From contig NZ_CP151637.1 of the NCBI RefSeq assembly GCF_038397755.1, positions 186,001-250,000 of the forward strand: a stretch of 64,000 nt of DNA, in the 5' to 3' direction. The notes below the pieces were generated by a model. It did no database searches, was not told the origin of the DNA, and worked only from the letters and a program-made list of their open reading frames with translations. Positions 33,798 to 42,569 of this stretch are shown here, one piece after another (within the stretch, counting starts at the first letter, position 1; each line of letters starts with the position of its first letter). The stretch comes from Microbacterium sp. LWH7-1.2. GTDB lineage: Bacteria; Actinomycetota; Actinomycetes; Actinomycetales; Microbacteriaceae. A program made the position numbers and the translations under genes.

Positions 33798-34343
33798 ATG
33801 GCCAGTCGCGAGGAGATGTCGCTGTCGTTCGGGGCCGCCGCGGGCGCGTACGAGTCGGGCAGGCCCGGGTATCCGCGCGAAGCCGTGGACTGGATGCTCC
33901 CTCCGGTGCGTGAGCCCGGACGCGCCCTGCGCGTGGCCGATGTCGGCGCGGGCACGGGCAAGCTCACCCGCACGATCGTCGAGGCCGGGGCCGAGGTCGT
34001 CGCGATCGACCCCGATGCCGACATGCTGGCCGCACTCCGCGAGCACGTCCACGGCGTTCCCACCTTCGTGGGGACGGCGGAACGGATGCCGCTTCCCGAC
34101 GCCTCCGTCGACGCGGTGCTCCTCGGGCAGGCGTGGCACTGGGTCGACCCGGTCGCCGCCTCCGCGGAGGTCGGGCGAGTGCTCCGCCAGCGTGGTGTGC
34201 TCGGGCTCGTGTGGAACACCCGCGACGGATCCGATCCGTGGGTTCACGACGGCCGGCAGATCCACGTCGGGCTCGACGCCTGGGGTCGTCTCGTCGAGGA
34301 GAGGGAGATCGGGCAGCTCATCGCAGCAGCCGAGAAGGAGTAG
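33798..34343 (+). pseudogene. Class I SAM-dependent methyltransferase, 5' part interrupted by island
   Basis: The promoter (TAGGGT, 33786-33791, six bases before ATG) and first 149 residues look intact: SFGAAAGAYESGRPGYPREAVDWML, motif I VADVGAGTGKLTR, VVAIDPDADML, and LLGQAWHWVDP. After VLGLVWNTRDGSDPWV (ending about 34244) the sequence stops matching the family and continues for 33 unrelated codons to a stop at 34343. The missing end of the same family appears at 41640-41840, in the same orientation, beyond the fucosidase island. The simplest reading is one methyltransferase gene split by insertion. The truncated product lacks the C-terminal substrate-side elements and is unlikely to work. 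Confidence 0.8.
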
Positions 34344-34531
34344 TGCGAGCGAGCCACCTTCATACCTGCGCGTGGTGGCCCGCACTCATGGTGGGCAAGG
34401 CTCAGCCACACCCGACTCTCCCGGGCCCCTCAGAAGCTTACGGATCGAGGCTCAGCGGTTGCCCTCGCCGCCGGAGTTTGCGGCATCTCACTCCAGATGT
34501 GACCGTCGAGTTCACGACCGCCAGACTTAGC

Positions 34532-35536
34532 TTAGTCATGTCCCGGTGCTGCTCCGGCGGAGAGGTGGTGCGTGAACTGCACCTCGAACACGCGGTCACG
34601 TGCCGGGCCGTCGTAGCCGTAGAGGACGCGGTCGAAGAGCAATCGGGTTGCGGTCTCGGCCATGCGGGCGATGGGCTGGACAGCACCGGTGAAGAACGGT
34701 TCGACGCCGCTGTCGTCTTGTGCGCTGTCGAAGGTGACGATGGAGACATCCTCGGGGATCCGCAGGCCCACCCGTCGGGCGGCGCGAGCAGCACCGAGCG
34801 CGATGTAGTTTCCTGCGGTCAGCAGGGCGGTGGGTCGTTCGGGTCCGGACAGGACGGCTGTCGCCATCGCGTCGCCGCTGCCTACTTCGTACTTGCCCCA
34901 GAGAACGTGGGGCGGCAACCCGGCGCGCGCCATCTCGGCGTTGTAGCCCTCTGCGCGATCGGAGGCGGTGACGACGTCCTGGGGGCCGGAGAGCATCGTG
35001 ATGCGCTGATGTCCGAGCTCGATCAGGGAGCGGGTGAGCTCGGATGCCGCGGACCCGGTGTCGCACCGGACGGTGTCGACGTCGTTGTGGGACATGCGGT
35101 AGTCCAAGACGACGATCGGGGTCCGCGTCGCCTGCACGAAGTCCACGGCGTCGGGTGTGCTCCGGACCGGAGCAAGGATGATCCCGTCCACGCGCCGTTC
35201 GATCAGTGCGCGCAGTTCACGTAGTTCCTGGTCGGGATTGCGGTCGGAGTGCGCGAAGACCACGGTGAAGCCCTCCTCGCGGGCGGCGGCGGTCACGCCC
35301 CTAACCTGTTGTATGGCGAAGGGGTTGGTGATGTCGTTGACGACGAGTGCGAGCATCATCGTGCGCCGTCGCAAGAGCCCCTGCCCGAGCCGGTTGGGCA
35401 CGTAGTGCAGCTCGTCGATCGCGGCGCGCACGCGTGATCTCGTCGGTTCGGCGACGGCATCCGGTTGGTTAAGGACCCGAGACACCGTCGTCGGCGCGAC
35501 GCCGGCGCGCGCTGCGACGTCTTTCATCGTCACCAT
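34532..35536 (-). CDS. LacI family transcriptional regulator
   Basis: A 334-residue repressor. The N-terminal helix-turn-helix and hinge are clear: MVTMKDVAARAGVAPTTVSRVLNQPDAV, then HYVPNRLGQGL. The periplasmic-binding-protein-like effector domain follows (LALVVNDITNPFAIQQVRGV, RVDGIILAPV, ALGAARAARRVGLRIPEDVSIVTFDS). GGAGG precedes the start; GTG 35533 is an alternative. It is divergent from the transport and fucosidase genes and probably represses them until a fucose-containing sugar binds. The stop is TAA, uncommon in this window. Confidence 0.9.
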   Translation of the reverse strand: MVTMKDVAARAGVAPTTVSRVLNQPDAVAEPTRSRVRAAIDELHYVPNRLGQGLLRRRTMMLALVVNDITNPFAIQQVRGVTAAAREEGFTVVFAHSDRNPDQELRELRALIERRVDGIILAPVRSTPDAVDFVQATRTPIVVLDYRMSHNDVDTVRCDTGSAASELTRSLIELGHQRITMLSGPQDVVTASDRAEGYNAEMARAGLPPHVLWGKYEVGSGDAMATAVLSGPERPTALLTAGNYIALGAARAARRVGLRIPEDVSIVTFDSAQDDSGVEPFFTGAVQPIARMAETATRLLFDRVLYGYDGPARDRVFEVQFTHHLSAGAAPGHD

Positions 35537-35602
35537 GGCGCCTCCCTGTGCCGATTGTAGGTGCAGGTCATCGAGGAGCGGGGAGGAGGTCCGATAAAAA
35601 CC

Positions 35603-35633
35603 TTGTGATTGCAGGGATGGTTCGCATACCATC
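35603..35633 (+). promoter_or_regulatory. Candidate promoter and LacI-type operator of the fucosidase operon
   Basis: TTGTGA (35603-35608) could be the -35, with CATACC (35625-35630) or TACCAT (35627-35632) as -10. Overlapping the -10 is an inverted repeat GATGGT-TCGCAT-ACCATC (35616-35633), well placed for repression by the divergent LacI protein. The surrounding stretch (GATAAAAACC) is the most AT-rich of the island. Confidence 0.5.
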
Positions 35634-35686
35634 GCCCACAAGCCGCTCGCCCGCCGCGGCCCTTGGACTCTCGAAGAGGAGATGTA

Positions 35687-35935
35687 ATGAGGATTTTCAC
35701 CGGCGTCGCGATCGGCGCAGTCGCCGCCGCGCTCGCGATGCCGATGCTGACCGCCTGTGGCAGCAATGGAGGCGTCGGCGGCAACGAGTCGGCCGCGCAG
35801 CAGACGGACGGCCCGGTCACTCTGAACTACTGGACCTGGTACCCCCGGGCACGTACATCTACCAGGCGACCCTCGGCGCCGACCGTGTCGGGTATGCGGC
35901 GGCCGCCTCAATCATCGTCCTCGTCATCGCGCTGA
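35687..35935 (+). pseudogene. Sugar ABC transporter binding lipoprotein, N-terminal remnant
   Basis: The ATG follows GAGGAG. The first 50 residues are a perfect lipoprotein start: MRIFTGVAIGAVAAAL, lipobox LTACG with the acylated Cys, a Gly/Asn linker and VTLNYWTWYP, the normal beginning of a mature sugar-binding protein. At about 35844 this ends abruptly; the frame continues only as the wrong frame of a permease tail. About 370-400 residues of the binding protein are missing. Confidence 0.85.
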
Positions 35936-35982
35936 TCGTCTCCCTCGTACAGATCGTGATCACCCGAAAGAGCTTGGGATGA
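35845..35982 (+). pseudogene. Sugar ABC transporter permease (MalF-like), C-terminal remnant
   Basis: From 35845 in the +1 frame relative to the binding-protein start, the translation PGTYIYQATLGADRVGYAAAASIIVLVIALIVSLVQ is the last transmembrane segment of a MalF/UgpA-type permease, ending in TGA at 35980-35982. Its stop overlaps the ATG of the MalG-like permease (ATGA), the normal operon junction. The upstream about 250 residues are absent, fused out of frame to the binding-protein remnant. Confidence 0.85.
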
Positions 35983-36881
35983 ACGAGACCGCACTCGTCA
36001 CTGTCCCGACATCCGCCACGCGCAGCAGGAAGCGGACCTCCCACGTCATCGACGAGCTGAACCCGCTTGCGATGCTGCGCTCACGCCCGCGCGACCGCGT
36101 CATCATCCGGGTGATCCTCGTCGTCCTGACGTTGTGGTGGATCTTCCCGCTGGCTGTTGCCGTTAGCTCCTCGCTTGGATTCGGCGGTCTGCAGAATTAC
36201 CTCTCCGTGCTGACCCAGCCCCTCAACGGCGTGTATCTCGGCGTCACCTTCCTCAACAGTGCGGTGATCGCGATCATCCACGCCGTGGCGGTCTGCGTGG
36301 TCTCGGCGCTTGCCGGGCTCGCGTTCTCGCGTCTCGAGTTTCCCTGGCGCGAGCAGATCTACTACGCCGTGCTCATCTTCCTCGCGGTGCCCGGCGCGGC
36401 GATCATCGTGCCGGTCTACTACATCTCCGGCACCCTGGGCCTGTTCAACTCATACTTCGGCGTCGCCCTGCCGGAGGCGGCGCTCACCCTGCCGTTCGGG
36501 GTGCTGCTGATGAAGAATTTCGCCGACGGCCTGCAGGCGAGCACCTTCGAAGCAGCCGCAGTCGACGGGGCGAACACCTGGCAGACCTTCCAGCGCATCT
36601 ACATGCCGCAAGTGCGCTCCCCGCTGATCAACCTGGCGATCCTGTCGATCATGTGGTCCTTCCAGGACTTCATCTTCCCCTCCCTTCTCCTGCGGACACC
36701 GGAGCTGACGACCGCGAGCCAGGCGGTGCAGACCATTCGAGGCGCGTTCGGCGCCACACCGCAGCAGAACGCCGGGTTCTTCGCCGCGCTCGTGCTGCTG
36801 TCTCTCCCGGCCGTACTGCTGGTCACCTTAGGTCTGCGATGGGTCAGTCGCGGCCTCACCTCTGGAGGTTCCAAGGAATGA
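35979..36881 (+). CDS. Carbohydrate ABC transporter permease (MalG family)
   Basis: A 300-residue inner-membrane permease with six transmembrane helices. The cytoplasmic EAA loop that contacts the ATPase is EAAAVDGANTWQTFQRIYMPQVRSPL. It would pair with a MalF-like partner, a binding lipoprotein and an ATPase supplied from elsewhere, but the partner and binding protein here are reduced to fragments, so it is probably non-functional alone. One leucine codon is TTA (36828-36830), rare here. It overlaps both neighbours by ATGA. Confidence 0.9.
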   Translation: MNETALVTVPTSATRSRKRTSHVIDELNPLAMLRSRPRDRVIIRVILVVLTLWWIFPLAVAVSSSLGFGGLQNYLSVLTQPLNGVYLGVTFLNSAVIAIIHAVAVCVVSALAGLAFSRLEFPWREQIYYAVLIFLAVPGAAIIVPVYYISGTLGLFNSYFGVALPEAALTLPFGVLLMKNFADGLQASTFEAAAVDGANTWQTFQRIYMPQVRSPLINLAILSIMWSFQDFIFPSLLLRTPELTTASQAVQTIRGAFGATPQQNAGFFAALVLLSLPAVLLVTLGLRWVSRGLTSGGSKE

Positions 36882-38398
36882 ACGAATCGAGCGCAGAAAT
36901 CGTGGACGATGCCCAGATCTCCGAACGCCGGCGCCAGCTGGTCGAGACGGTCGCAGACGGTGCCAAGCAGGGCCCGTTCGCGCCCAAGTGGACGTCGCTG
37001 ACGACCGCGGGGACACCCGAGTGGATTCAGGATGCCAAGCTCGGCGTCTTCATCCACTGGCTCGTGAGCGGGGTCCCCGCCTTCGGCAGCGAGTGGTACG
37101 CGCGCAATATGTACGTCGCGGGCACCCCTGAGTACGCCCACCACCTGGAGACGTACGGGCCCCACGCCAAGTTCGGTTTCAAGGACTTCATCCCGAGGTT
37201 CTCGGGGGAACGGTTCGACGCCGACGAGTGGATGAACCTGATCGCCTGGTCCGGCGCGCGGTATGTCGTCCCCGTCGCCGAGCACCACGACGGGTTCGCG
37301 CTCTACGACAGCGACCTCACGCGGTGGAAGGCCACGGACATGGGACCTCAGCGCGACGTCATCCGAGAGCTCGCCGCTGCCGCCCGAGCTCGCGGTCTCG
37401 CGTTCGGGGTGTCCAACCACCGTGCCGAGCACTGGTGGTTCTTCAACGGCGGCAAGAAGCTCGACAGTGACGTGCAGGACCCCACATACGCGGACCTCTA
37501 CGGTCCCGCCCAGCCGCTCGATACCCAGCCCGACACCGAATTCCTGGACGACTGGACCGCCCGTCTCGCGGAGGTCGTTGAACGCTACGACCCCGAGATC
37601 GTCTACTTCGACTGGTGGATCGAACAGCCGGCCTTCCGTCCACGCCTCGCCGAGTTCGCGGCCTACTACTACAACCGGGCCGCGCGCGCCGGTCACCGTC
37701 CGCCCGTCATCAATTACAAGTGGCAGGCCTTCGACAAGGGCTCGGCCGTCTACGACATCGAACGCGGAACCGCGCAAGGCATCGAGAGCGAGTTCTTCCA
37801 GAACGACACCTCCGCGTCGCGGATCGGGTGGGCCCACCTGCACTGCAACGTCTTCAAGACGGCGCAGGACGTGATCGGTGAGCTGATCGACGTGGTGTCG
37901 AAGAACGGCGCCCTTCTGTTGAACATCGGGCCCCGCCCCGACGGATCGATTGTGCCCGAGGAGCGCGCTGTGCTCGAGGGACTGGGGGCCTGGATGCGCG
38001 TCAACGGCGAGGCGATCTACGAGTCGCGTCCGTGGCGTGTGTTCGGGGAAGGCCCGACCGTTCCGCGCGTCGGCTCCTTCGCCGACACCGAGCCCACAGT
38101 CTGGACGCGCGGAGACCTCCGGTTCACCGCCAAGGGCGATGTGGTCTACGCCGCCCCGTTCATCGACCCGGGCCCCCGGGTCACCGTGCGCTCGCTCGGC
38201 CGCAGGCTGCGCATCGTCGGCGAACAAGTGTTGGAGGTGACCGTGCTCGGCCACGGCCCCGTGCTCTGGCGGCAGGACGATGAAGGACTGCACGTCGATC
38301 TCACGGGACTGCGAGCCGGTCTCCCGACCCCGGTCCTGCGCATCGAGCTCAAGGATGCGCACCCCGTTCAGCGCTTCGAGCCAGGATTCCCCGATTGA
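36878..38398 (+). CDS. Cytoplasmic alpha-L-fucosidase (GH29)
   Basis: A 506-residue glycoside hydrolase without a signal peptide, so it acts inside the cell on imported fucosylated oligosaccharides. The (beta/alpha)8 domain begins near WIQDAKLGVFIHWLVSG; the histidines His60, His136 and His137 (VAEHHDGFALYDS) line the fucose site, and Asp245 in EIVYFDWWIEQP is the likely nucleophile. GALLLNIGPRPDGSI closes the domain and a C-terminal beta domain follows. Start ATG 36878 lies in the ATGA overlap with the permease and is preceded by AAGGA. The general acid/base is not evident, as usual for GH29. Confidence 0.9.
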   Translation: MNESSAEIVDDAQISERRRQLVETVADGAKQGPFAPKWTSLTTAGTPEWIQDAKLGVFIHWLVSGVPAFGSEWYARNMYVAGTPEYAHHLETYGPHAKFGFKDFIPRFSGERFDADEWMNLIAWSGARYVVPVAEHHDGFALYDSDLTRWKATDMGPQRDVIRELAAAARARGLAFGVSNHRAEHWWFFNGGKKLDSDVQDPTYADLYGPAQPLDTQPDTEFLDDWTARLAEVVERYDPEIVYFDWWIEQPAFRPRLAEFAAYYYNRAARAGHRPPVINYKWQAFDKGSAVYDIERGTAQGIESEFFQNDTSASRIGWAHLHCNVFKTAQDVIGELIDVVSKNGALLLNIGPRPDGSIVPEERAVLEGLGAWMRVNGEAIYESRPWRVFGEGPTVPRVGSFADTEPTVWTRGDLRFTAKGDVVYAAPFIDPGPRVTVRSLGRRLRIVGEQVLEVTVLGHGPVLWRQDDEGLHVDLTGLRAGLPTPVLRIELKDAHPVQRFEPGFPD

Positions 38399-38488
38399 CG
38401 GACACAACCACCCGCTTGCTCACCACGCCGCCGCGGAGGAGGCCGACGGCGAGACCCACCGACAACGTATAAACCCAAAGGAGAGTTC

Positions 38489-41095
38489 ATGAATCGGCTT
38501 CGACGTATCGCTCTACTCGCCGCCCTCGCCCTCGTGGCGCCGTTACTGACCGTGACGGTCGGTCCACCCGCCCCGGCCACTGCGGCCGACCAGCTCACCC
38601 AGTTGAAGGACTTCTACAACGCCAACGACGCGTCGAAAGGGTACGTCGATCTGTCCCAGACCGACGTGTCGTACCTCCGTGCGTCACAGGCGACCTTCGG
38701 CGGGTCCGGGCTGACGCAAAACAGTGACGACAAGGCTTACGCGCACGGCGACCCCGTCACCGGCTGGAACAGCACGAGCCAGTCCTTCTCGTGGGTCGTG
38801 CACAACACGACCGCGGGCGCATTTGTCGTGAATGTGCTCATCCAGAACGGTTCGGGAACCATCAAGGTCGTCGACGGATCGAACTCGGTCACCAAGTCCT
38901 ACACAGGTGTGGACAACGGCTATTCGTGGGGCAACTGGAACAAGACGAACTACGGGCAGCTGACCATCCCCGCCGGAACGTCGACGATCACGATCGCCGC
39001 GACGACGACTCCATCGGTGTCGATGGGGCTGCTGTCGCTCGAGCTGACGCCTGCATCTCAGCAGTCGACGATCGCCGCCGCGGTAGCGGCAGGCAAGTCG
39101 AAGGCGACATGGATGAAGAACTCGCCGCTCGGCGCGATGTACCAGTGGGGACAGTGGGGTGCCTACCCGGACGGCTCGCAACCCGCATGGCCGACCGTCT
39201 ACGCCAATGCCGATTTCAACGCCCTCGCTGCACGCGACAAGGCAATGGGTGCGAGCTACGTCGTCTGGTCCATCACCTGGACCCAGTACTACATCGCTGC
39301 CCCGATCACCTCGGTCGACGCCGTGCTCCCCGGACGCACAACCAGCCACGACTACCTGCAGGACATGCTCACCGCGTACCACAACCAGGGTCTGCGGGTG
39401 ATCTTCTACTACCACGCGGGCCACGACGACAACCCGAACCTCGACTGGTGGAACGCCTTCTGGGGCGTCTCGCCCAACGGTCACTATGCGCAGAAGGCCG
39501 ATGCCATCAACCGGTGGATGAACATCGTGTCGGAGATCGGTAACCGTTACGGCACGCAGCTGGACGGCTGGATGTTCGACGACGGCCCCACCTACTACCC
39601 CTCGCCGACGGCGTTGGTGAACTCGGCGGTCCGTGCAGGCAATCCCGACCGGATGGTGTCGTTCAACACAAACTGGAACTCGCCGCGGCTCACCGACTAC
39701 GAGGACTTCACGTTCGGCGAGTCCAACGACGGCACCCGATACCCGGTGGATGCCAACGGCGTTATCACGGCAGGAGGCTTCGTCGGCGAGCAGGCCTTCG
39801 GCACCAACAACATGGACTGCGGTGACTGGGGTGTGCGCACCGGCGACACCGGTTCCATCTCCACGTGCCGCAGCGGTGTCGACATGACCTCGTTCGCTCA
39901 GAAGGCGGCAGCCGCGCACGTCAGCCAGGCGATGAATCAGCGGATGTGGAGCGACCTCACGCAGTCGCCCGACAGCATCGCGAATTTCACGGCCGGCGGA
40001 CAGACCGTCGCGGCGCTCTACCCGACGGCGACCATCGACGACGGCAACGCCGCGGTCAGCTACACAGGAACGTGGGAGAACAGGAACCCGGGTGGCTGCT
40101 ACAACAACACATGCCACAACATCCGGTCGAGCGGGGCCTCGGCTCAGCTGACCTTCACCGGCAGTGGCATCACCTGGAACTCCATCCTCGGACCGGACCA
40201 AGGCAAGGCCGACGTCTACGTCGACAACACCCTCGTGCAGACGGTGAACCTGTACAACCCGGCGCGCTCAGTGAACGTGCCGGTGTTCACCCGAGGGCTG
40301 CCATACGGGTCGCACACGATCAAGGTCGTCACCGCGAACAACAGCTGGGTCACGGTGGACGGCTTTGGTGTGCAAACGGCGCAGGTGCTCGACGACGGCG
40401 ACTCCGCCGTCACCTACGCGGGTGCGTGGCAGAGCAGCGACCCGGGCGGCTGCTTCAACAACACGTGCCACAACGTGCACTCCAGCGGCGCTTCCGCCAC
40501 GGTCACCTTCTCAGGCACCGGCATCACTTGGAACTCCATCACCGGTTCGGGCCAGGGCCAGGCAACCGTGTCCATCGACGGCGGGACGCCTCAAGCGGTG
40601 AACCTGGTCCAGTCGAAACGTTCCGTCAGCGTGCCGATCTTTACCGCGAGGGGGCTGAGCAACGGAAACCACACCCTGAAGGTCACGTCGGCAAGCAGCG
40701 ACTGGGTCACCGTCGACAGCTTCATCGTGTCGCACGCGTCCACCGTCGACGACAGCTCGTCGGCGGTGACCTTCACGGGGAGCTGGCAGAACAGCAACCC
40801 CGGGGGCTGCTACAACAACACCTGCCACAACATCCAGTCCGCGGGAGCGTCCGCGCAGGTCGCGTTCAGTGGCACCGGGATCACGTTCAACTCCATTACG
40901 GGGTCTGATCAAGGTGCGGTCAGGGTGTACGTCGACGGGGTCCTCGATCGCACAGTGAACCTCTACAACTCGCAGCGGACGGTAGGTGTGCCCGTCTACA
41001 GCCGCTACGGGCTGCCTCCCGGCTCGCACACGCTGAAGTTGGTCGCGGACAACTCCTCGTGGGTGTCGGTCGACAGCTTCAGCGTCACCGGCTGA
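38489..41095 (+). CDS. Secreted GH29-like glycoside hydrolase with three C-terminal Cys-containing repeats
   Basis: An 868-residue exported protein. Signal peptide about 1-32 (APATAAD cleavage region). Residues about 35-190 resemble a CBM-like beta-sandwich. Residues about 195-505 form a catalytic barrel with GAMYQWGQWGAYPDGS, VVWSITWTQYY and QLDGWMFDDG (Asp359 the candidate nucleophile). Three repeats of about 115 residues (514-868) follow, each with GGC(Y/F)NNTCHN, SGTGITWNSI-like and SVDSF-like blocks. No LPXTG or surface-layer motif is present. It would release fucose or fucosylated fragments outside the cell. AAGGAG precedes the ATG. A TTA leucine codon occurs at 38543. Confidence 0.82.
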   Translation: MNRLRRIALLAALALVAPLLTVTVGPPAPATAADQLTQLKDFYNANDASKGYVDLSQTDVSYLRASQATFGGSGLTQNSDDKAYAHGDPVTGWNSTSQSFSWVVHNTTAGAFVVNVLIQNGSGTIKVVDGSNSVTKSYTGVDNGYSWGNWNKTNYGQLTIPAGTSTITIAATTTPSVSMGLLSLELTPASQQSTIAAAVAAGKSKATWMKNSPLGAMYQWGQWGAYPDGSQPAWPTVYANADFNALAARDKAMGASYVVWSITWTQYYIAAPITSVDAVLPGRTTSHDYLQDMLTAYHNQGLRVIFYYHAGHDDNPNLDWWNAFWGVSPNGHYAQKADAINRWMNIVSEIGNRYGTQLDGWMFDDGPTYYPSPTALVNSAVRAGNPDRMVSFNTNWNSPRLTDYEDFTFGESNDGTRYPVDANGVITAGGFVGEQAFGTNNMDCGDWGVRTGDTGSISTCRSGVDMTSFAQKAAAAHVSQAMNQRMWSDLTQSPDSIANFTAGGQTVAALYPTATIDDGNAAVSYTGTWENRNPGGCYNNTCHNIRSSGASAQLTFTGSGITWNSILGPDQGKADVYVDNTLVQTVNLYNPARSVNVPVFTRGLPYGSHTIKVVTANNSWVTVDGFGVQTAQVLDDGDSAVTYAGAWQSSDPGGCFNNTCHNVHSSGASATVTFSGTGITWNSITGSGQGQATVSIDGGTPQAVNLVQSKRSVSVPIFTARGLSNGNHTLKVTSASSDWVTVDSFIVSHASTVDDSSSAVTFTGSWQNSNPGGCYNNTCHNIQSAGASAQVAFSGTGITFNSITGSDQGAVRVYVDGVLDRTVNLYNSQRTVGVPVYSRYGLPPGSHTLKLVADNSSWVSVDSFSVTG
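40028..41092 (+). repeat. Three tandem about-350-bp repeats encoding a carbohydrate-binding-like module
   Basis: Units start near 40028, 40382 and 40739. Each encodes D-D/S-x-x-x-AV-x-Y/F-x-G-x-W, then GGCYNNTCHN, an S-G-A-S-A segment, GITWNSI-type block, a VxVD loop and ending GxHTxKV...SWV(T/S)VD(S/G)F. The fold resembles the beta-sandwich repeats at the ends of many extracellular glycosidases (established family type), but the paired cysteines C-x4-CHN are a distinctive insertion present in all three. Confidence 0.85.
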
Positions 41096-41100
41096 GTGAG

Positions 41101-41132
41101 CGTGAAGCGGTGTCATCTGACACCGCTTCACG
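41101..41132 (+). terminator. Strong hairpin terminator after the secreted hydrolase
   Basis: 15-bp perfect stem CGTGAAGCGGTGTCA / TGACACCGCTTCACG with a 2-nt centre, six bases after the stop. Confidence 0.88.
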
Positions 41133-41145
41133 CCCTTGCTCGACT

Positions 41146-41180
41146 CCTCAGGAGAGCGAAAGTCATGGAATCTCCTGAGG
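41146..41180 (-). terminator. Hairpin terminator for the minus-strand kinase remnant
   Basis: 10-bp perfect stem CCTCAGGAGA / TCTCCTGAGG with a 15-nt loop, located ten bases beyond the stop (41191) of the minus-strand remnant. Confidence 0.65.
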
Positions 41181-41190
41181 CGGAGGGGTC

Positions 41191-41640
41191 TCAGCGGGAG
41201 ACGGGGTCGGCGGATCCGGCGCTCGCGAGCTCGGATCGACGGATGCCGCCCTGCCAGCCGCCGGGGTGCAGGCAGGCGTACGCGCCGGCGACGGCCGCGG
41301 TGCGGAGCCTGGTCGTCGCGTCGCTTCCGGCGCAGCGTTCAGAGAGGTATCCGGCGGCGCCGGCGTCGCCCGCGCCGACCGTGTCGACGGGGGCGATGGG
41401 CACGGGGGACACCCGGATACTCGCCGACATGCCGGTAGCCGGGGGGTCAGGGACGGGGACGTTTCGCTTGTACACCTTGTCGGTCCGCTTGAACCGGATG
41501 ACCAAACCGCCATCTTTTCGGCCTTCGATGAGGTGTGGGACGTTCGCCTCCGGACGCCCGTTGTAGGTCTCCGGGTGGATTCGCGGGTGGTAGCCGCGAC
41601 GCCACGACTCTGCCCGCTCGTACAGCTCCCGGAACGTAGA
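41191..41640 (-). pseudogene. PfkB-family sugar kinase C-terminal remnant joined to unidentified sequence
   Basis: The last part (minus strand, about 41191-41420) encodes VSPVPIAPVDTVGAGDAGAAGYLSE, the PfkB/ribokinase GAGD motif that carries the catalytic Asp, followed by AAVAGAYACLHPGGWQG and a short tail. The N-terminal two thirds of a kinase are absent. Instead the same open frame extends upstream into about 70 codons I cannot place (FRELYERAESWRRGYHPRIH, HLIEGRKDGGLVIRFKR), up to an in-frame TGA near 41651, with no good start. A fuculose- or other sugar-kinase origin would suit the island, but that is inference. Confidence 0.6.
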
Positions 41641-41840
41641 CCCGCTCCCTCACACGGGCGGCGTTGCTCGACATGGTCGCCTCGCGCAGCTATGTCATCA
41701 CCGCCTCCGAGGTCGACAGGGTGGCGATCCTCGCGGCCGTGAGCGCACTGTTCGACGAGCGCCGCCTCACCGAGGCCACCGGCGTCGAGGTCGTCGACCT
41801 CCCGTACGTGACGCACGCATATCGCGCCATCCGCAGCTGA
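41640..41840 (+). pseudogene. Class I SAM-dependent methyltransferase, 3' part
   Basis: An open stretch of 66 codons without its own start: SLTRAALLDMVASRSYVITA, then EVDRVAILAAVSALFDERRL, ending VEVVDLPYVTHAYRAIRS and TGA. The LTRAxLLDxxxSRSYVIT and LPYVTHxYRA motifs are the characteristic end of the methyltransferase family whose beginning lies at 33798-34244. An in-frame TAG (41637-41639) directly precedes it. Joining the two parts leaves roughly 35-50 residues unaccounted for. Confidence 0.8.
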
Positions 41841-41853
41841 ACGCTCCGGCGGG

Positions 41854-42510
41854 CTACGCGCGGACGGCACCCACGATGTGCCACGGCCCGCTGACTTCGC
41901 GGTAGCGCGGCTCCAACCCGCGCCCGGTCAGCACGGCGATCATCGCGTCGGGCACGTGGGCGTACGCACGATACGGGTTGCCGGTCAGGGTGTACCACGC
42001 GTTGATCGCGCGTGCCGAGAACCGGGCGAACAGCGTGCGCGGCGGGTGGCTGAACACGACGGCCTGCTTGGCGCGGCCGGCGGCGGCGCCCAGCAGTCGC
42101 TCGTAGTCGCGATAGCAGCACACCACCCGATGCAGCACCACGATGTCGGCGCGTTCGACGGCCTCGGGCGTGCTCGCGAGGTCGACCCCCAGCATCCGTG
42201 TCACCCGGTCGCGCAAGCCGGCCTCGTCGAGCAGCCGCGCGGCCTCGGGTTCGTAGGCGGTGGACAGCTCGACGTTCGTGGTGCGGGAAGCGCCCCGCTT
42301 GAGCGCTTCGAGCTGGATGTCGCCGATCCCGCCGCCGATCTCGAGCAGCGAGGCACCCGCCAGGCCGATCGAGTCCGCGAAGTCGAGCACGAGCGCCGCG
42401 CTCGGCGTGAGACCGTCCCGTCGATACCGGTGCGCGAGCCGCCGGGCGAACCGGGCATTGAACTCTCGGTCGTAGCCTTCCGGCACGTGCGGTGCACAGC
42501 ACTCGTCCAC
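41854..42510 (-). CDS. Class I SAM-dependent methyltransferase
   Basis: A 218-residue Rossmann methyltransferase. Motif I is LLEIGGGIGDIQLEALKRGA, motif II region VELSTAYEPEAARLL, and post-I blocks DIVVLHRVVCCYRDYERLL and VFSHPPRTLF, resembling the magnesium-protoporphyrin O-methyltransferase-like branch; the substrate is unknown. The GTG start (MDECCAPHVPEGYDREF) lies six bases after GATACT on the minus strand (plus 42517-42522), the leaderless pattern. The N-terminal CC pair could bind metal or be redox-active. It is convergent with the interrupted methyltransferase 3' part. Confidence 0.85.
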   Translation of the reverse strand: MDECCAPHVPEGYDREFNARFARRLAHRYRRDGLTPSAALVLDFADSIGLAGASLLEIGGGIGDIQLEALKRGASRTTNVELSTAYEPEAARLLDEAGLRDRVTRMLGVDLASTPEAVERADIVVLHRVVCCYRDYERLLGAAAGRAKQAVVFSHPPRTLFARFSARAINAWYTLTGNPYRAYAHVPDAMIAVLTGRGLEPRYREVSGPWHIVGAVRA

Positions 42511-42569
42511 GCGCTCAGTATCGCCCCCGGCGTCGGGGTGGGCAACGCCGCCATCTAGACTGGATGCCC

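What the first reader, a model, noticed from the sequence alone, without database searches (positions are those of the whole stretch)
33798..41840. A 7.4-kb fucosidase island splits a SAM-methyltransferase gene
The gene at 33798 has a good promoter and normal methyltransferase motifs up to DPWV (about 34244), then turns into unrelated sequence. At 41640, same strand, an orphan stretch without a start encodes SLTRAALLDMVASRSYVITA...LPYVTHAYRAIRS, the end of that same family. Everything between is sugar-utilisation cargo. The coincidence of a missing tail and an orphan tail flanking one island is hard to explain otherwise. Roughly 35-50 residues of the methyltransferase are lost at the junctions, and no recombinase is visible, so the mechanism is open.
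Basis: partly seen in the sequence, partly recalled or inferred. Interest (0 to 1): 0.75.

Follow-up and report, generated by a model that had tools for sequence, protein, structure and literature searches.

The report
Broken fucosidase island splits methyltransferase gene
A piece of foreign DNA carrying fucose-sugar enzymes, with a sliver of a plasmid gene at one end, has landed inside a methyltransferase gene and replaced 111 of its bases; this is a clear but ordinary kind of DNA acquisition, most likely by end-joining repair.

Summary
Confirmed. The methyltransferase head (33798-34243) and orphan tail (41639-41840) are the two ends of one gene. Homologues occur in 275 of 365 other genomes of the genus, and the sister genome G338 (flank blocks 94-97% identical) has the gene whole at the same place. 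The window has 7,395 bp in place of 111 bp.

The insert is more than sugar cargo. It is a mosaic with at least four gene-breaking joints: methyltransferase | unidentified stretch, LacI, binding-protein start | permease end, permease, GH29 fucosidase, GH29-like enzyme, kinase end | 0.2-kb slice of a large-plasmid gene | methyltransferase. The transporter and kinase are broken; the regulator and two fucosidase-type genes look intact. I found no recombinase, supported tRNA or end repeats, and the target is deleted, not duplicated. The genome encodes Ku and LigD.

Best explanation: illegitimate end-joining capture of plasmid-derived DNA, with target loss and cargo decay. The reaction and the plasmid carriage of the cargo are inferred. 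An allele patch at 41707-42535 leaves import of an already split allele as a rival. A known kind of event; moderate interest.

The parts
33798..34243 (+). 5' part (codons 1-149) of a SAM-dependent methyltransferase gene; the ORF runs on into the insert to 34343
   Evidence: Pfam Methyltransf_11 E=4.6e-20; 96.0% nt to G338; homologue at E<=1e-40 in 275 of 365 other genomes
34243..34244 (.). left junction J1
   Evidence: alignment to the G338 and G028 empty sites
34244..34531 (.). unidentified filler / 3' flank of LacI, GC 65.6%
   Evidence: no long match in 216 other genomes (best 48 bp at 85%, at its right end) nor in plasmids
34532..35536 (-). LacI-family regulator, apparently intact (the ORF can be read further upstream)
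   Evidence: Pfam LacI E=7.7e-19, Peripla_BP_1 E=6.3e-30
35687..35845 (+). first ~53 codons of a lipoprotein-type sugar-binding protein (SBP)
   Evidence: 44% to an SBP start in L063 6744-6896, E=3e-6; 488-aa open frame there
35848..35979 (+). last ~44 codons of ABC permease 1, joined out of frame to the SBP start (junction J2, about 35846)
   Evidence: 53% to L063 8894-9007, E=0.024, weak alone but in the expected place; about 2.0 kb lies between the two points in L063
35979..36881 (+). ABC permease 2, apparently intact
   Evidence: BPD_transp_1 E=2.6e-14
36878..38398 (+). GH29 alpha-L-fucosidase, apparently intact
   Evidence: PF01120 E=3.6e-90; best 53% in other genomes of the genus and 55% for an own paralogue; best segment 58% in genome contigs
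38489..41095 (+). 868-aa secreted-type protein (signal peptide judged by eye): GH29-like fucosidase fold plus CE2_N-like repeats
   Evidence: model mean pLDDT 82.6; top PDB matches FucWf4, e.g. 9pnk_A TMt 0.81, E=1.5e-23; 90% homologue P0001
41191..41416 (-). last ~74 codons of a PfkB-family sugar kinase; the front (about 230-240 residues) is absent
   Evidence: PfkB E=9.3e-8, profile positions 240-294 of 302; 88% aa to G092
41416..41420 (.). junction J3, kinase | plasmid-gene slice
   Evidence: nucleotide alignments end within about 3 bp of each other
41420..41634 (-). internal slice (about residues 402-483 of 970) of a large-plasmid gene, with a one-base gap relative to both relatives aligned
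   Evidence: 59% aa to the G199 protein; 68% to a Frondihabitans plasmid; nucleotide alignments
41634..41639 (.). right junction J4, plasmid-gene slice | methyltransferase tail
41639..41840 (+). 3' part of the methyltransferase gene (66 codons + stop)
41707..42535 (.). allele patch: rest of the tail plus the second methyltransferase gene MT2 (41854-42510, -), 16% divergent from G338 while head, dnaQ-like gene and ychF are 2-4% divergent
   Evidence: 133/829 vs 18/446 mismatches, Fisher p=1.3e-11

Best explanation
A dispensable methyltransferase gene next to ychF was broken by insertion of foreign DNA. The insert brought a fucoside-utilisation cluster (LacI, ABC transporter, GH29 fucosidase, secreted-type GH29-like fucosidase, sugar kinase) and ends in a slice of a gene typical of large plasmids. 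It was joined to the chromosome without homology, most likely by end joining at a break (Ku/LigD type), so that 111 bp of target were lost and no target duplication was made. Deletions before, during or after integration removed most of the binding protein, the first permease, the kinase front and the plasmid backbone. Shown: the split gene, the empty site, the size of the loss, the four joints, the plasmid affinity of the slice, and that Ku and LigD are encoded. Inferred: plasmid carriage of the cargo, end joining as the reaction, and the order of events.
For: Empty site in G338, with flank blocks of 94.3%, 97.2% and 94.1% identity, and 111 bp there in place of 7,395 bp. Homologues in 275 of 365 other genomes. 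GC of the main insert genes 0.64-0.67 against 0.70-0.71 in the flanks (exceptions: kinase piece 0.78, a 95-bp spacer 0.60). The GH29 reaches at most 53% in other genomes of the genus, and the 868-aa gene has relatives at E<=1e-20 in 3 of 365 other genomes, at 31-37%. The slice at 41420-41634 matches genes on actinobacterial plasmids (7 records); near-full-length relatives of the whole gene sit on five actinobacterial plasmids of 266-450 kb. Joints J3 and J4 are resolved to about 5 bp. No exact 12-bp repeat, direct or inverted, within 300 bp of the two ends, no Rfam tRNA at the site, no integrase or transposase family over its cut-off among the insert proteins scanned. Ku and LigD over their cut-offs. 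Precedent: 5 insertions of 30 bp to 18.8 kb at healed breaks in Streptomyces ambofaciens, with NHEJ named as concomitant with integration (PMC5869714, passages).
Against: Only the ~0.2-kb slice points to a plasmid; the kinase piece has no match in the plasmid collection and the GH29 only distant ones (best listed 46.6%). The seven actinobacterial plasmid records with the slice are typed non-mobilizable (5) or mobilizable (2), not conjugative. The kinase piece is close to this genus (88%), unlike the rest of the cargo. Ku and LigD also occur in relatives without the insert, so their presence is weak evidence. Microhomology cannot be judged because the donor is unknown. The divergent patch 68 bp right of the insert shows that homologous exchange also acted here.
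Confidence: 0.6

Rival explanations
1. Import of an already split allele: the insertion happened in another lineage of the genus, and this strain received insert plus right flank by homologous recombination.
For: 41707-42535 is 16% divergent from G338 while head, dnaQ-like gene and ychF are 2-4% divergent. The window lacks the 0.7-kb gene that G338 has between MT2 and ychF, as G385 and G205 lack it.
Against: The first 68 bp after the insert are G338-like (3 of 68 mismatches; p=0.0075, boundary chosen after looking), so the patch does not touch the insert. The pair G084-G260 shows a similar patch although both have the gene whole. No split copy was seen in the listed rows of other genomes (list truncated).
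Confidence: 0.2
2. Integration of a plasmid or mobile element by its own recombinase or by an IS, followed by deletion that removed the machinery and the end repeats.
For: Plasmid-gene slice at one edge; the internal breaks show that pieces were lost.
Against: No recombinase, IS remnant, supported tRNA target or 12-bp repeat at either end. 111 bp of target are missing, which site-specific integration and simple transposition do not by themselves cause (established knowledge).
Confidence: 0.17
3. Assembly artefact: unrelated sequences joined inside the gene.
For: Several abrupt gene-breaking joints within 7.4 kb; I saw no reads.
Against: Single-contig assembly, completeness 100, contamination 0.15; both halves of the split gene sit in the right order and orientation at the right place.
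Confidence: 0.03

Closest known systems
Dimorphic loci / variable segments attributed to illegitimate recombination (PMC2884548, passages seen)
   Same: Related genomes carry unrelated sequence at one site; no known mobile element; illegitimate recombination inferred
   Different: Here 7.4 kb with metabolic cargo and a plasmid-gene slice, in a genome that encodes Ku/LigD; the paper stresses short segments in E. coli, S. aureus and S. pyogenes and calls NHEJ almost absent in prokaryotes
Insertions at healed double-strand breaks in Streptomyces ambofaciens (PMC5869714, passages seen)
   Same: Insertion of 30 bp to 18.8 kb at a repair site in an actinobacterium
   Different: Those inserts came from the strain's own genome after I-SceI cutting; here the DNA is foreign and the event historical
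Homology-facilitated illegitimate recombination (PMC3240628, passages seen)
   Same: Insertion coupled to deletion, an illegitimate end
   Different: Needs homology at the other end; the paper cites on average 1 kb inserted and 1 kb deleted; no homologous end was demonstrated here
Actinobacterial fucoside cluster with SBP, two permeases and GH29 (L063, Catenulispora MAG)
   Same: Same gene order from SBP to GH29, with an 868-like gene nearby
   Different: In the window most of SBP and permease 1 is missing, the regulator is LacI (in L063 it looks GntR-type, recalled from its sequence), and the 868-like gene lies downstream of GH29

Membership tests
Integrative element / genomic island with its own integrase | integrase or other site-specific recombinase gene | tested here: not met
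   none among the insert proteins scanned
Integrative element / genomic island with its own integrase | attachment-site repeats or tRNA target | tested here: not met
   no exact 12-mer shared by the 600-bp stretches around the two ends; the ARAGORN tRNA-Trp at 41876 has no Rfam support
Transposon / composite transposon | transposase, terminal inverted repeats, target duplication | tested here: not met
   no transposase over cut-off (one weak HTH_Tnp_ISL3 match inside LacI, 19.0 vs cut-off 27.4); the target is short by 111 bp, not duplicated
Illegitimate (end-joining) insertion | insertion with loss of target and no extended homology between the ends | tested here: met
   111 bp lost, 7,395 bp gained
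Illegitimate (end-joining) insertion | NHEJ enzymes available | tested here: met
   Ku and LigD polymerase domain over their cut-offs
Illegitimate (end-joining) insertion | dependence on Ku/LigD, microhomology at donor ends | not testable with these tools
   donor sequence unknown
Homology-facilitated illegitimate recombination | one end joined by homologous recombination | tested here: inconclusive
   the divergent patch starts 68 bp from the insert
GH29 fucosidase (36878-38398) | Alpha_L_fucos domain over cut-off | tested here: met
   303.3 bits against cut-off 25.2
FucWf4-type GH29-like fucosidase (868 aa) | fold | tested here: met
   TMt 0.79-0.81 to 9pnj/9pnk at 17-18% identity
FucWf4-type GH29-like fucosidase (868 aa) | catalytic residues and activity | not tested
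   no residue-level comparison was made

The most novel reading that the evidence does not exclude
The insert is a natural concatemer: DNA pieces from three or more sources (a distant actinobacterial fucoside cluster, a kinase end close to this genus, and an internal slice of a large-plasmid gene) were ligated together and into a chromosomal break in one end-joining event, so that NHEJ directly built a new catabolic locus from scraps.
Probability: 0.25. Interest if true: 0.6.

Novelty: new member of a known kind. Interest (0 to 1): 0.38.

Why it matters
It is a clean natural case, with a close sister genome as the 'before' state, of foreign metabolic DNA entering an actinobacterial chromosome at a disrupted gene with no recombinase in sight and with breakpoints known to a few bases. 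[quoted passage not shown] It also shows that a plausible sugar-use island can be largely broken and should not be read as a working pathway.

Tried and rejected
Rejected: that the head is a naturally short protein or that the tail belongs to another gene. Rejected: the tRNA-Trp at 41876 as integration target; it lies inside MT2 and Rfam does not see it. Led nowhere: the identity of 34244 to about 34480 (DNA in 216 other genomes; plasmids; Pfam of one frame). Viral contigs gave no relative of the plasmid-slice gene or of the 868-aa gene at the sensitivity used, and phage records only three distant ones of the former (22.9-29.7%). No close donor of the GH29 in genome contigs (best segment 58%) or plasmids (best listed 46.6%); the kinase piece has no plasmid match at E<=1e-5. 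The 868-aa gene has only partial relatives on plasmids (14 records, none over 80% of the query).

Limits: my script read the loci lying on the other strand wrongly, so 13 of its 29 loci show both head and tail; the tail search has 28 hits over all loci held then. One search found the gene in 29 of 30 loci (L151 missed); one search aligned 17 of those 29. In one search the part right of 42535 is misaligned, because G338 has an extra gene there, and was not used. The end-repeat test covered 300 bp on each side of each end and exact words only. Genome tables were cut in length, so statements on single rows cover the listed rows.
Full report
WHAT IS THERE. The 33798 ORF is the front of a SAM-dependent methyltransferase (Methyltransf_11, E=4.6e-20). 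Its homology to close relatives stops at about codon 149, after DPWV. The stretch 41640-41837 is open for 66 codons and matches the end of the same relatives (65.7% to G028 over residues 187-256). Searching the genus with the full-length G028 protein gave a match at E<=1e-40 in 276 of 366 genomes, the window's own included. In the listed rows (the list is truncated and does not show the window's own row) the matches run nearly end to end. In 13 of 13 loci that I chose to examine, head, tail and ychF lie together; MT2 is in 11 of these 13.

EMPTY SITE. G338 is a sister genome: 94.3% over 7.5 kb left of the insert, and 97.2% and 94.1% in two blocks to the right beyond the patch described below; most 150-bp windows are 91-99%, a few lower, one 59%. 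It has the gene whole. Against it the window keeps everything up to ...GATCCGTGGGT (34243), lacks 111 bp, and resumes at GACCCGCTCCC (41639); G028 gives the same 111 bp. The insert is 34244-41638, 7,395 bp. Its main genes have GC 0.64-0.67 against 0.70-0.71 in the flanks (exceptions: kinase piece 0.78, a 95-bp spacer 0.60).

THE INSERT IS A MOSAIC. From the left: (a) 34244-34531, of which the first ~240 bp could not be identified. (b) A LacI regulator. (c) The first ~53 codons of a lipoprotein-type sugar-binding protein (44% to L063, E=3e-6), joined out of frame at about 35846 to the last ~44 codons of an ABC permease (53%, E=0.024). In the Catenulispora MAG locus L063 the corresponding points are about 2.0 kb apart, in a row of open frames: binding protein, permease 1, permease 2, GH29. 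(d) Permease 2 and a GH29 fucosidase, both apparently intact. (e) An 868-aa protein with no catalytic Pfam domain. Its model (mean pLDDT 82.6) best matches the GH29-like fucosidase FucWf4 in the PDB (TM normalised by target 0.79-0.81, 17-18% identity), so it is probably a second fucosidase-type enzyme; activity is untested. (f) The last ~74 codons of a PfkB kinase, 88% identical to G092, where the kinase frame is long. (g) A slice at 41420-41634 from the middle of a ~970-aa gene (G199 residues 402-483). The alignments of (f) and (g) end within about 3 bp of each other. (h) The methyltransferase tail.

PLASMID LINK. tblastn with the slice finds 7 plasmid records: Frondihabitans (68%), two Mycolicibacterium, Mycobacterium, Rhodococcus and two Streptomyces; 5 are typed non-mobilizable and 2 mobilizable. 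With the whole G199 gene, 1,202 plasmid records match, 1,060 of them called conjugative, but most are enterobacterial and those shown are distant (about 22% over half the length); the five near-full-length ones are actinobacterial plasmids of 266-450 kb. The window's genome has no other part of this gene. In the kinase-plus-slice search the slice part was seen in G199 alone among the listed rows of the other 236 genomes (list truncated). Plasmid origin of this slice is therefore likely; that the fucoside cargo travelled with it is inference.

MECHANISM. No integrase or transposase family over its cut-off among the insert proteins scanned, no supported tRNA, no exact 12-bp repeat between the ends, and missing target instead of a duplication. 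The genome encodes Ku and LigD, as do relatives without the insert. [quoted passage not shown] Comparisons of E. coli and two other species use the term dimorphic loci and attribute many variable segments to illegitimate recombination (PMC2884548, passages). HFIR, with one homologous end, is described in PMC3240628 (passages). Passages of PMC7719229 and PMC5124664 were also seen.

A COMPLICATION. From 41707 to 42535 the window differs from G338 at 133 of 829 bases, against 18 of 446 in the head (p=1.3e-11), and it lacks a gene that G338 has before ychF. The first 68 bp after the insert are G338-like (3 of 68; p=0.0075 against the patch, boundary chosen post hoc). So a separate allele exchange lies next to the insert. 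A similar drop (dnaQ 95.8, head 94.6, tail 77.4, MT2 80.2) occurs between G084 and G260, whose gene is whole. I therefore keep import of an already split allele as a rival, not as the main reading.

CONSEQUENCE. The methyltransferase is very probably lost: no second good copy was found in the genome (the other two own-genome matches are 37% and 40% over 101 and 91 residues). It is not universal in the genus (90 of 366 genomes have no match at the threshold). The transporter cannot work as encoded and the kinase is cut, so the island is unlikely to be a complete pathway; the two fucosidase-type genes and LacI may still be expressed.

LITERATURE. Searches (open-access PMC library; 8 to 15 papers listed in each, some of many more) listed no paper on this locus; that is no proof of absence.

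Noticed in passing
own genome G000:C1:2471880-2472687 (L224 3881-4688): A second broken GH29: pieces in different frames matching residues 63-203, 267-386 and 385-423 of the window's GH29 at 38-53%, with residues missing inside and the front not matched. This genome has more than one decayed fucosidase.
   Followed up: partly
window 38489-41095: The 868-aa protein family (18 relatives aligned, 34-90% identity) has no catalytic Pfam model but a FucWf4-like fold; possibly an undescribed branch of fucosidase-type hydrolases with CE2_N-like repeats.
   Followed up: partly
P0019 (JGI protein, 679 aa): A GH29 preceded in one frame by truncated pieces of the 868-like family: the same gene pair broken in another way elsewhere (read by eye).
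   Followed up: no
window 41707-42535 and L191: Allele patch next to the insert; G338 has an extra ~0.7-kb dihydrofolate-reductase-like gene between MT2 and ychF that the window, G385 and G205 lack (gene name recalled from its translation).
   Followed up: partly
window 41876-41958: ARAGORN reports tRNA-Trp inside MT2; no Rfam match, probably false.
   Followed up: yes
L190 6361-9273 and plasmids: The ~970-aa gene behind the slice is an uncharacterised family on large plasmids, from actinobacteria to enterobacteria; its function would be worth knowing.
   Followed up: no
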